Origin: Candidatus Omnitrophota bacterium
Lineage (GTDB): Bacteria > Omnitrophota > Koll11 > VGKN01
Assembly: GCA_016867055.1 (NCBI GenBank)
Contig: VGKN01000084.1
Coordinates: 1-6,877 of the forward strand
DNA length: 6,877 nt
Reading direction: 5' to 3'
Positions 3 to 5,831 of the stretch are shown one piece after another. Made by a program: the position numbers and the translations under genes. Under the pieces are notes generated by a model. The model was given only the letters and a program-made list of their open reading frames with translations. It made no database searches and was not told the DNA's origin. The first letter of the stretch is position 1; every line of letters starts with the position of its first letter.

Positions 3-1238
3 GAATTTGGGTATTGCCACGGCGTTGAGAACTATTCAAGGCACCTCTCAGGAAGACCTCCCGGCTCAAGGCCGTATTGCCTGATAGACTATTTCCTTTA
101 CCCCGTTAGAAATCCTCAAGCAGAGGACGCTATTTCTAACGGGGCGAGGGATTTTCTTATAATAATTGATGAATCGCATGTTACTATACCGCAAATAGAG
201 GGGATGTATAACGGTGACAGGTCAAGGAAGGAAACCCTCGTGGAATATGGTTTCAGACTTCCTTCCTGCCTTGATAATAGGCCGTTAAGGTTTGATGAGT
301 TTGAAGGTCTTATAAATCAGGTGATTTTTGTATCTGCCACACCTAGTCAATACGAATTATTAAAATCAAAAACAGCGGTGGAGCAGATAATAAGACCCAC
401 TGGTTTAGTTGACCCCCAGATAAAGGTTTTACCTACTAAAAATCAGATACCAGACCTTATGAAGCGGATAAAGGAAAAGGCAGAGAAGGACCAAAGGACG
501 CTCGTAAGCACTCTTACTAAAAGGATGGCAGAAGAATTAGCGCATTTTTTAAGCGAGAAAGGCTTGAGGGTGAAATATCTCCATTCCGAGTTTGGTGCCT
601 TTGAGAGGGTAAAGATTTTAAAAGAGTTAAGACTCGGAGAGTTTGACTGCCTTGTGGGGGTAAACCTCTTGCGTGAGGGGCTTGACCTGCCTGAGGTTTC
701 CCTGGTGGCTATACTGGATGCGGATAAAGAGGGTTTTTTAAGAAGCCAGACATCCCTTATACAGGTGGCAGGAAGAGCCGCCAGAAATGTGGATGGAGAA
801 ATCGTTATGTATGCAGATACAAAAACGCGCTCAATGGAGAAAACTCTAAGGGAATGTGAAAGGAGAAGGAGGCTCCAACTTGGGTATAACAGGACCCATC
901 ACATTACACCCACTACCATAAAGAAGGCAATAAGGGAAGGCATTGAGATATTCTACAGGGCAAAAGAGGTTGTGAGAGAATCCACTAATCTCTCAGAAGA
1001 TAATTTTGATTTAGAAAATGTACTTTTTGAATTGGAACACGAGATGCAACTTTATGCAAGAAATCTGCAGTTTGAGGAAGCGGCTAAGGTGCGAGAAAGG
1101 ATTAGAGAACTTCTTGAGACTTACGGCCTTTTAGAAAAAAAGAGCAGTATAAAACTAGATGCTACAAAGGAATTATTGGAGATTATAAAAACAAGAAAGA
1201 AGGGAAAGAAATATGCGCAACATTCCAACAGAGGATAG
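3..1238 (+). CDS. uvrB: UvrB, excinuclease ABC subunit B (5' end outside window), with an in-frame palindromic insertion
   Basis: UvrB is the DNA-loading and damage-verifying helicase-like subunit of the UvrABC nucleotide excision repair system in the cytoplasm. The frame is open from base 3, so the gene enters from the left and roughly the first 300 residues of a ~670-residue family are missing. Counting base 3 as residue 1, I see GYCHGVENYSRHLSGR (3-18), the DESHVTIPQ Walker B motif (56-64), GMYNGDR, FVSATP (109-114), TLTKRMAEE (170-178), GVNLLREGLD (219-228), QVAGRAARN (254-262) and a C-terminal UVR domain (about 339-374, LEHEM...FEEAAKVR) that contacts UvrA and UvrC. Residues 32-49 (LYPVRNPQ AEDAISNGAR) are not UvrB sequence; they are encoded by the palindrome at 100-144 and sit where the family normally has about two residues (DYFP-D-DF). 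All downstream motifs are intact, so the gene is probably functional. The 3' end overlaps birA. The identification is very secure. Confidence 0.97.
   Translation, partial: EFGYCHGVENYSRHLSGRPPGSRPYCLIDYFLYPVRNPQAEDAISNGARDFLIIIDESHVTIPQIEGMYNGDRSRKETLVEYGFRLPSCLDNRPLRFDEFEGLINQVIFVSATPSQYELLKSKTAVEQIIRPTGLVDPQIKVLPTKNQIPDLMKRIKEKAEKDQRTLVSTLTKRMAEELAHFLSEKGLRVKYLHSEFGAFERVKILKELRLGEFDCLVGVNLLREGLDLPEVSLVAILDADKEGFLRSQTSLIQVAGRAARNVDGEIVMYADTKTRSMEKTLRECERRRRLQLGYNRTHHITPTTIKKAIREGIEIFYRAKEVVRESTNLSEDNFDLENVLFELEHEMQLYARNLQFEEAAKVRERIRELLETYGLLEKKSSIKLDATKELLEIIKTRKKGKKYAQHSNRG
100..144 (+). repeat. Palindromic element E1, inserted in frame in uvrB
   Basis: CCCCGTTAGAAAT (101-113) and ATTTCTAACGGGG (132-144) are perfect 13-bp inverted arms around an 18-nt core. 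The core contains a smaller stem, CCTC (114-117) with GAGG (123-126). The same arms recur at 2781-3054 and 3695-3739 in non-coding DNA. Here the element is read through as PVRN...ISNG within UvrB. The reading frame used has no stop, although another frame of the element does (TAG in CCC CGT TAG). The net gain over normal UvrB is about 16 codons. The resemblance to Rickettsia palindromic elements is in behaviour, not in sequence. Confidence 0.9.
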
Positions 1239-2780: not shown

Positions 2781-2904
2781 ACCCTGTTAGAGATAAGTCG
2801 CCTTTTGGCGACTGTAAATTATCTTTACCATTTATACAAAACTTATTCTTTTTCATATTTTTGTTAAGAAAAAAAGAGCCTGTATTTTTAATCTCTAACG
2901 GGGT
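2781..2904. repeat. Palindromic element E2 (long-core copy)
   Basis: The left arm ACCCTGTTAGAGAT (2781-2794) pairs with the right arm ATCTCTAACGGGGT (2891-2904) over 14 positions, with a single T/G (wobble) position. The 96-nt interior starts with a perfect 7-bp hairpin, AGTCGCC (2796-2802) TTTT GGCGACT (2807-2813), and is otherwise very AT-rich. The arms match E1 and E5 except for the change from GAAAT to GAGAT. The right arm of E2 and the left arm of E3 are two bases apart and can also pair with each other. Confidence 0.8.
2796..2813. terminator. 7-bp hairpin after the 2379 gene; possible weak terminator or element core
   Basis: The perfect stem AGTCGCC/GGCGACT with a TTTT loop starts 16 bases after the stop codon. 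It is followed by GTAAATTATC rather than a T-run, so factor-independent termination is doubtful. It may simply be the folded core of element E2. Confidence 0.35.
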
Positions 2905-2932
2905 AAACCCTGTTAGAGAACTTTGTTCTTTT

Positions 2933-2963
2933 ACCCTGTTAGGGAATCCTTTTCTAATAGGGT
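2933..2963. repeat. Palindromic element E4, compact copy nested in E3
   Basis: ACCCTGTTAGGGAA (2933-2946) and TTTTCTAATAGGGT (2950-2963) pair at all 14 positions around a 3-nt loop, but three of the pairs are G-U. As DNA the arms have drifted apart; as RNA on this strand the stem is unbroken. The bases after the right arm (GAGTGATTT) resemble those after E1 (GAGGGATTT), which may mark the true end of the element. Confidence 0.72.
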
Positions 2964-2975
2964 GAGTGATTTGTG

Positions 2976-3035
2976 CTGATGGTGGTATTAAACCGTCATC
3001 GGTTTTATAAGATATACCGCCACCGAGTTCGTCAG
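2976..3035. repeat. Long three-tier hairpin inside E3
   Basis: CTGA (2976-2979) pairs with TCAG (3032-3035). TGGTGGTAT (2980-2988) pairs with ATACCGCCA (3014-3022), with one G-U. AAACCG (2990-2995) pairs perfectly with CGGTTT (3000-3005) around TCAT. The base sequence is unlike the CCCCGTTAG arms, so this may be a different repeat family or a captured structured RNA. Confidence 0.6.
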
Positions 3036-3077
3036 TAATTTTCTCTAACGGGGTAAAGATAAGAAAGGCACGGTGAA

Positions 3078-3685: not shown

Positions 3686-3694
3686 CACAGGTAA

Positions 3695-3739
3695 ACCCCG
3701 TTAGAAATAGCGTCCCACGCTGTGGGATTTCTAACGAGG
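3695..3739. repeat. Palindromic element E5 in the leader of the rhodanese gene
   Basis: CCCCGTTAGAAAT (3696-3708) and ATTTCTAACGAGG (3727-3739) are arms with one mismatch, flanked by A and T that extend the pairing. The 18-nt core AGCGTCCCACGCTGTGGG (3709-3726) contains the stem CCCAC/GTGGG. The core has the same length as that of E1, and read on the opposite strand E1 begins with the same AGCGTCC. It is the closest relative of the copy in uvrB. Confidence 0.88.
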
Positions 3740-3856
3740 TAAAGGAAGTTAAATTTAAAGGACGGGACAAAAGCTGCATACTTAATTAAATTTTTAATTG
3801 CATCCCTAAATTCATAACACCAAATCATATCAAGATACACTTACACAAGGAGATTT

Positions 3857-4539: not shown

Positions 4540-4566
4540 CCATTTTGAAATGGAAGTGGTATAGTT
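4540..4566 (+). promoter_or_regulatory. 27-bp promoter-like motif, copy 1
   Basis: CCATTTTGAAATGG (4540-4553) is a palindrome (CCATTT-TG-AAATGG), followed by AAGTGG and a -10-like TATAGT (4560-4565). The end of the -10 is 21 nt before the ATG at 4587. A second copy with 25 of 27 identical bases lies at 5805-5831. There is no good -35 hexamer 17 nt upstream (AAGCCA), so an activator, or a repressor binding the palindrome, could be involved. Confidence 0.55.
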
Positions 4567-5804: not shown

Positions 5805-5831
5805 CCATTTTGAAATGGAAGTAGTATAATT
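5805..5831 (+). promoter_or_regulatory. 27-bp promoter-like motif, copy 2
   Basis: The palindrome CCATTTTGAAATGG (5805-5818) is identical to copy 1, followed by AAGTAG and a consensus -10 TATAAT (5825-5830). The -10 ends 22 nt before the ATG at 5853, almost the same geometry as copy 1. The two changes between copies are both G to A and improve the -10, so this promoter may be the stronger one. No -35 match (TCCCCA at the expected place). Confidence 0.6.

What the first reader, a model, noticed from the sequence alone, without database searches (positions are those of the whole stretch)
93..155. A palindromic repeat inserted in frame in uvrB next to the helicase motif
Seen: uvrB is open across a perfect 13-bp inverted repeat that encodes 18 residues between DYF and DFLIIIDESH. 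The same arms recur four more times in non-coding DNA here. Known: UvrB has about two residues at this place (P-D), and Rickettsia palindromic elements are a precedent for repeats kept inside proteins. Inference: the element invades genes in a non-stop frame and UvrB tolerates a surface loop just before Walker B. It could also fold in the mRNA during translation.
Basis: partly seen in the sequence, partly recalled or inferred. Interest (0 to 1): 0.85.

Follow-up and report, generated by a model that had tools for sequence, protein, structure and literature searches.

The report
Mobile palindrome inside a repair protein
A tiny hairpin-shaped DNA element, which looks mobile, sits without breaking the reading frame inside the DNA-repair gene uvrB of an uncultivated bacterium, and it belongs to a family found the same way inside other genes in two bacterial phyla.

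Summary
uvrB of this Omnitrophota contig carries a 44-bp palindrome (101-144, perfect 13-bp arms) adding 16 residues in frame; the closest UvrB found (89% identical) lacks it. Four more copies lie in non-coding DNA of the window. The pattern CCCYGTTAGA...TCTAACRGGG occurs in 78 of 384 Omnitrophota, 9 of 192 Patescibacteria and 0 of 99 Acidobacteriota genomes; read backwards, in none of them. Of 134 copies collected from 36 genomes, 73 have identical 4-bp direct repeats as flanks (shuffle mean 16.5), and flanks fit YNNR in 127 and 128 of 134: a target-site duplication, so the copies were inserted as mobile DNA. The uvrB copy itself has unlike flanks (TTTA/CGAG). Of 27 copies lying in open frames of at least 60 codons on each side, all 27 keep the frame open. 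Pfam-named hosts include GcvT, an ammonium transporter, a ParA-type ATPase, MurJ and DNA polymerase I. In UvrB the same loop is occupied in several lineages. It works like Rickettsia palindromic elements, but its arms differ and its duplication is clear. The mobilising enzyme was not found. Two UvrBs identical at 669 of 675 residues differ only inside the insert.

The parts
3..1238 (+). uvrB, 3' part (411 codons, 5' end cut by the window)
   Evidence: UvrB hits, Pfam Helicase_C, UvrB and UVR
101..144 (+). 44-bp palindromic element in frame in uvrB (PVR...SNG frame)
101..113 (+). left terminal inverted repeat CCCCGTTAGAAAT
132..144 (+). right terminal inverted repeat ATTTCTAACGGGG
114..131 (+). 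interior, with a short inner stem CCTC/GAGG; in the 3696 copy read on the other strand it is CCCAC/GTGGG
97..100 (+). left flank TTTA (fits YNNR)
145..148 (+). right flank CGAG (fits YNNR, but differs from the left flank at all four bases: no intact duplication at this copy)
2782..2903 (.). 122-bp copy, flanked by TAAA on both sides (2778-2781, 2904-2907)
2908..3053 (.). 146-bp copy, TAAA on both sides; shares the TAAA at 2904-2907 with the preceding copy
2934..2962 (.). 29-bp degenerate copy nested in the 2908-3053 copy (flanks TTTA/TGAG)
3696..3739 (.). 44-bp copy, TAAA on both sides (3692-3695, 3740-3743); 3696-3747 is 87% complementary to 93-144

Best explanation
The insert is a non-autonomous mobile palindrome, MITE-like, of a family shared by Omnitrophota and some Patescibacteria. 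It has 13-bp terminal inverted repeats (10 bp used to find it, plus 3 lineage-specific complementary bp) and a variable interior; sizes run from about 28 bp to about 150 bp. Shown by sequence: copies sit at YNNR with a 4-bp duplication. Shown by sequence: copies inside long open frames all have length + 4 divisible by 3 and are read in a stop-free frame (PVR...SNG or PLE...LTG). Inferred: an unidentified enzyme acting in trans inserts copies, selection removes gene-breaking ones, and in-frame copies survive where the protein tolerates a flexible loop. In UvrB that place is the loop just before the Walker B strand, occupied in several lineages. Inferred: the peptide is translated and roughly neutral, and the hairpin also forms in the mRNA without blocking translation.
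For: Empty relatives: P0002 89%; P0066, 85% identical to insert-bearing P0005; L001. Family: 78/384 Omnitrophota, pattern read backwards 0 in all; 9/192 Patescibacteria; 0/99 Acidobacteriota. Mobility: identical 4-bp flanks 73/134 versus shuffle mean 16.5, maximum 29 of 1000; offsets off that register give at most 5. YNNR 127/134 and 128/134 versus 42 and 40 four bases further out. Patescibacteria 10/17. Nine tandem copies in one genome separated by exactly 4 bp. In-frame rule: 27 of 134 copies lie in an open frame once element + 4 bp are removed (at least 60 codons each side), and 27/27 are also open with the element, 0 broken; non-ORF copies have mixed lengths, 40:23:21 for remainder 2:0:1. 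Hosts: of 20 host proteins given to Pfam, a domain match runs across the insert in 11 (GcvT, class-V aminotransferase, ammonium transporter, AAA_31/ParA, MobA-like, FtsA-fold, PDDEXK_1, DNA pol III delta, MurJ, class I W/Y tRNA synthetase, Fer4_20). Stem positions 11-13 covary (108/114, 91/114, 80/110 Watson-Crick versus shuffle means 38, 64, 33). Structure: P0005 insert 328-348 is a loop, pLDDT <50 at 333-345, in a UvrB fold.
Against: The uvrB copy has unlike flanks (TTTA/CGAG), so its own duplication is not shown. 61 of 134 copies lack identical flanks; 27 of these differ at one base, as mutation would give, but 48 of the 61 still fit YNNR on both sides, which mutation alone does not explain. 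No transposase sharing the ends was found, and neither family tested tracks the element clearly. At a looser cut (40 codons each side) 4 of 36 copies break the frame. Some of the 27 frames may not be genes: 20 were checked and one of these (L181) had no Pfam match. No transcript, peptide or excision data. The window's uvrB is a contig end and its AlphaFold model is weak (mean pLDDT 71.9).
Confidence: 0.85

Rival explanations
1. It is a REP sequence moved by a RAYT/Y1 (HUH) tyrosine transposase, as in many REP-rich bacteria.
For: Hairpin shape, small size, in-frame copies in repair genes as reported for REPs (PMC3733652, section 15 read). Y1_Tnp genes are common in the phylum (60 of 72 genomes).
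Against: GTAG lies within 8 nt of an arm in 0 of 134 copies; CGTC in 2 of 134, never adjacent. A 4-bp duplication is not expected of HUH enzymes (general knowledge). Y1_Tnp is detected in 31 of 36 genomes with 4 or more copies and 29 of 36 without, and not in G326 (11 copies) and G357 (9 copies).
Confidence: 0.08
2. The insert is not translated: the ribosome bypasses it or the RNA is processed, as for palindromes bypassed in yeast mitochondria.
For: The RNA hairpin is predicted very stable (44 nt -24 kcal/mol; 63 nt -32.8, z -7.45). Bypassed palindromes are known in mitochondria of Magnusiomyces capitatus (PMC6649704, passage seen).
Against: 27 of 27 copies in long frames keep the frame and avoid the stop-bearing frame, a constraint that a skipped element would not need.
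Confidence: 0.04
3. The insert is a selected, functional UvrB loop rather than a tolerated parasite.
For: The same loop carries the insert in several lineages and other long inserts in more (P0011, P0024, P0026). uvrB and other repair genes are hit in REP/RPE species too.
Against: Near relatives lack it. Its interior is not conserved. 0 of the 30 best UvrB loci fetched from GTDB Omnitrophota carry it. Predicted with very low confidence, i.e. probably disordered.
Confidence: 0.08
4. Assembly or sequencing artefact of one contig.
For: Only one contig holds the window's version.
Against: The frame is open, the same family is in 87 genomes of two phyla, and related inserts stand at the same place in five other UvrB records.
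Confidence: 0.02

Closest known systems
Rickettsia / Wolbachia palindromic elements (RPE, WPE)
   Same: Palindromic repeats kept in frame inside unrelated conserved proteins as well as in intergenic DNA; reported at solvent-exposed places (PMC3767692, passages); uvrB is a reported host in R. conorii (PMC3733652, section 15).
   Different: RPEs are about 100-150 bp, and a review lists their target-site duplication as unknown (PMC2229807, passages). Here many copies are far shorter (134 collected: 23-53 bp, which is the pattern's limit; 29-122 bp in G230, where pairing was not limited), the ends are CCCYGTTAGA, a 4-bp YNNR duplication is clear, and the hosts are Omnitrophota and Patescibacteria. 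Sequence kinship to RPEs was not tested.
Bacterial MITEs (Correia/NEMIS, RUP, ERIC, QMITE)
   Same: Terminal inverted repeats, target-site duplication, no coding capacity of their own, trans-mobilisation presumed.
   Different: Many copies are below the usual 70-300 bp (size from PMC3733652, passage); duplication of YNNR instead of TA; no parent insertion sequence found.
REP sequences with GTAG/CGTC tags and RAYTs
   Same: Size, hairpin, dimers, occasional in-frame copies in repair genes, ends that can supply a TAG stop (PMC3733652).
   Different: No GTAG/CGTC tag, has a duplication, no link to presence of Y1 transposase.
Coding palindromes of Nematomorpha mitochondria
   Same: Perfect inverted repeats within translated genes.
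   Different: Those are long (arms up to 142 bp) and mitochondrial (PMC6649704, passages seen).

Membership tests
MITE (non-autonomous DDE-type element) | terminal inverted repeats | tested here: met
   13-bp arms; positions 11-13 covary across 115 unique copies
MITE (non-autonomous DDE-type element) | target-site duplication of fixed size | tested here: met
   4 bp, 73/134 versus 16.5 by shuffling; not intact at the uvrB copy
MITE (non-autonomous DDE-type element) | ends shared with an autonomous element in the same genome | tested here: inconclusive
   G230 only: 98 of the 100 listed arm places (203 in all) pair within about 120 bp, the other two have a degenerate partner; no pair at transposon distance among those seen
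MITE (non-autonomous DDE-type element) | a DDE transposase that tracks the element | tested here: inconclusive
   DDE_Tnp_1 in 17/36 genomes with 4 or more copies versus 9/36 without; other families not tested
Rickettsia palindromic elements | in-frame presence inside conserved proteins | tested here: met
   27/27 copies in long frames open; Pfam hosts
Rickettsia palindromic elements | length about 100-150 bp | tested here: inconclusive
   collected copies are 23-53 bp, the limit of the search pattern; G230 pairs span 29-122 bp; single longer copies of 107-147 bp exist, some holding nested copies, as in the window
Rickettsia palindromic elements | sequence kinship to RPE families | not tested
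   no RPE sequences were compared
REP/RAYT system | GTAG or CGTC tag beside the hairpin | tested here: not met
   adjacent in 0 of 134 copies
REP/RAYT system | co-occurrence with Y1 transposase | tested here: not met
   31/36 versus 29/36 genomes

The most novel reading that the evidence does not exclude
The elements are exchangeable cassettes: fixed arms and fixed length hold a place open inside genes such as uvrB, while the interior is replaced wholesale, for example by conversion from other copies through the shared arms, so that a working repair protein acquires a hypervariable loop without other change. P0006 and P0007 (669/675 identical, all six differences in one block inside the insert) are the pair that suggests it.
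Probability: 0.2. Interest if true: 0.85.

Novelty: new variant of a known kind. Interest (0 to 1): 0.62.

Why it matters
In-frame palindromes in proteins are described mainly from Rickettsia and REP-rich species (in the papers seen), and the duplication left by RPEs is listed as unknown. This family gives a clear insertion signature (4-bp YNNR duplication), about 411 strict copies in 384 genomes (my sum over the table), and a length rule that separates mobility from selection. It makes the question of how proteins gain loops from selfish DNA testable with many natural replicates, including repeated occupation of one UvrB loop.

Tried and rejected
No whole genome is held for the window, so relatives were used. 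An attC/integron-like reading was considered because GTTAGA/TCTAAC resembles GTTRRRY/RYYYAAC (recalled); dropped because the order of the two cores is reversed and copies carry a direct duplication. A parent transposon with the same ends was sought in G230: two seemingly unpaired arms proved to be paired with degenerate arms; half of the arm places were not listed, so absence is not shown. Y1 and DDE_Tnp_1 transposases do not track the element clearly. Rfam has no match in the window at gathering scores. In L062, L133, L041 and L034 the extra UvrB residues do not clearly show this element. Viral contigs hold palindromes of this pattern (20 stretches); they were left out of the counts. The third protein search found no further hypervariable UvrB. 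The motif as a text string hit 19 papers (listing); the one with an inverted repeat (PMC3969353) was looked into by passages and its match is in an oligonucleotide of another locus. The tree's change count compares insert rows with other-insert rows only; recurrence is read from the topology, not from that number. Ten single genomes outside the main sample had 1 positive (the Patescibacterium of L062).

Full report
What is there. The window comes from an Omnitrophota bacterium: the best named UvrB hits are Omnitrophota. uvrB (3-1238) is open across a 44-bp palindrome at 101-144 with perfect 13-bp arms. The arm decamer CCCYGTTAGR is found 8 times in 6.9 kb, 0.04 expected. Four other copies lie in non-coding DNA: 2782-2903, 2908-3053, a degenerate 29-bp copy nested in the latter (2934-2962), and 3696-3739. 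Three of the four are flanked by TAAA on both sides; the first two share the middle TAAA. The uvrB copy and the 3696 copy read on its other strand have the same arms (one base apart) and the same ACGCT beside an inner stem that differs on both sides (CCTC/GAGG versus CCCAC/GTGGG).

Relatives of the gene. The site region was read in the 120 listed UvrB proteins. Five, the window included, carry a PVR/PIR...SNGAR insert (P0001, P0004-P0007); a later search added P0121. The closest relative, P0002, lacks it: the gap is 16 residues, i.e. 48 bp = 44 + 4. P0066, 85% identical to P0005, lacks it too. In the 30 UvrB loci fetched as best matches from GTDB Omnitrophota none has it; one (L133) has other extra residues. 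On the tree the insert-bearing rows sit in four places (P0001; P0005-P0007; P0004; P0121), with insert-less rows as near neighbours of the first two. This means repeated gain, or gain with losses. My arithmetic on the inserted residues gives elements of 29 (P0121), 44 (P0001, P0004) and 53 bp (P0005-P0007); 53 and 29 are the commonest lengths among the collected DNA copies (30 and 25 of 134). Unrelated long inserts occupy the same loop in P0011, P0024 and P0026.

A family. The paired pattern occurs in 78 of 384 Omnitrophota genomes, up to 44 copies, and the same pattern read backwards in none; 9 of 192 Patescibacteria; 0 of 99 Acidobacteriota. In G230 the 12-base arm with up to one mismatch gives 100 forward and 103 reverse matches against 2 and 1 for the control; of the 100 places listed, 98 form close pairs (29-122 bp).

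It moves. From loci around copies in 36 of the 78 positive Omnitrophota genomes (genomes counted) 134 distinct copies with flanks were collected, two of them overlapping a longer one; viral contigs were left out. The sampling is not even: a few rich genomes give many copies. Identical 4-bp flanks: 73 of 134; 1000 reshufflings of right flanks gave mean 16.5, maximum 29; reverse-complementary flanks 9 versus 17. All 73 duplications fit YNNR. Left flanks fit YNNR in 127 and right flanks in 128 of 134, against 42 and 40 four bases further out. Of the 61 unmatched copies 27 differ at one base; 48 fit YNNR on both sides. Patescibacteria copies: 10 of 17. The uvrB copy has TTTA and CGAG: both fit YNNR but differ at all four bases. 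I do not know why unmatched flanks keep YNNR; exchange between copies is one possibility.

It respects genes. Removing element + 4 bp reveals an open frame of at least 60 codons on both sides at 27 of 134 copies; all 27 are also open with the element, none is broken, and one more copy is open only with the element. With 40 codons the numbers are 36, of which 4 are broken. Copies in frames of at least 60 codons have length = 2 modulo 3 in 28 of 28, copies outside frames in 40 of 84; 22 copies lie between these classes. Identical flanks are seen in 13 of those 28 and 49 of those 84. Two of the three frames through the arms are stop-free and both are used (PVR 21, PLE 7). Twenty of the 27 distinct host frames were given to Pfam: 19 have a match and in 11 a domain match runs across the insert; elsewhere it lies between domains or outside them, as in a Der/EngA-type GTPase and DNA polymerase I. 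Three copies extend prepilin-like leaders (TPLE...LTG|FTLIEL), and one protein holds two copies in tandem.

Shape. Arm positions 11-13 are complementary far more often than shuffled (108/114, 91/114, 80/110) and with several pair types; from position 14 on they are not above the shuffles. The first ten positions were fixed by the search and cannot be tested. The hairpin in the uvrB mRNA is predicted at -32.8 kcal/mol for 93-155, z -7.45. AlphaFold2 of the full-length insert-bearing P0005 gives a UvrB fold (best match 3uwx_B) with the insert as a loop of very low confidence between helix 323-327 and strand 351-355.

Comparison with the literature. In-frame palindromes are known as RPEs (PMC10969869, passages; PMC2229807, passages, which lists the RPE target duplication with a question mark) and as intragenic REPs including R. 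conorii uvrB (PMC3733652, section 15). So the kind is known. I found no description of this family in searches, which cover open-licence PMC papers only and were judged by their listings and a few opened papers.

Open. The mobilising enzyme is unknown. P0006 and P0007 differ at six residues, all inside the insert, in 675: a single pair, protein only, from two sources, DNA not available here.

Noticed in passing
P0006 and P0007: Two UvrB proteins identical at 669 of 675 residues; all six differences form one block inside the palindromic insert (HCYSPMDANG versus HWSADISANG).
   Followed up: partly
P0011, P0024, P0026: Unrelated long inserts at the same UvrB loop; that of P0011 is a tandem pair of PTPI...NWCGG units whose codons could form a different palindrome.
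   Followed up: no
L106, L159, L203: Copies inside prepilin-like leader peptides directly before the FTLIEL motif (TPLE...LTG|FTLIEL).
   Followed up: partly
L234:2-1819: A PDDEXK_1 family protein with two copies of the element in tandem, both in frame.
   Followed up: partly
window 4540-4566 and 5805-5831: A second repeat, CCATTTTGAAATGGAAGTRGTATARTT, 93% identical, each shortly upstream of an ORF start (4587, 5853).
   Followed up: no
L277 1638-1646: An element arm supplies the stop codon (CCC CGT TAG) of an upstream ORF.
   Followed up: no
L161-L180: Viral contigs hold palindromes of the same pattern, some with longer arms (for example AAGCCCCCGTTAGA...TCTAACGGGGGCTT).
   Followed up: no
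Y1 transposases are abundant across the sampled Omnitrophota (60 of 72 genomes, up to 15 matches in one).
   Followed up: no
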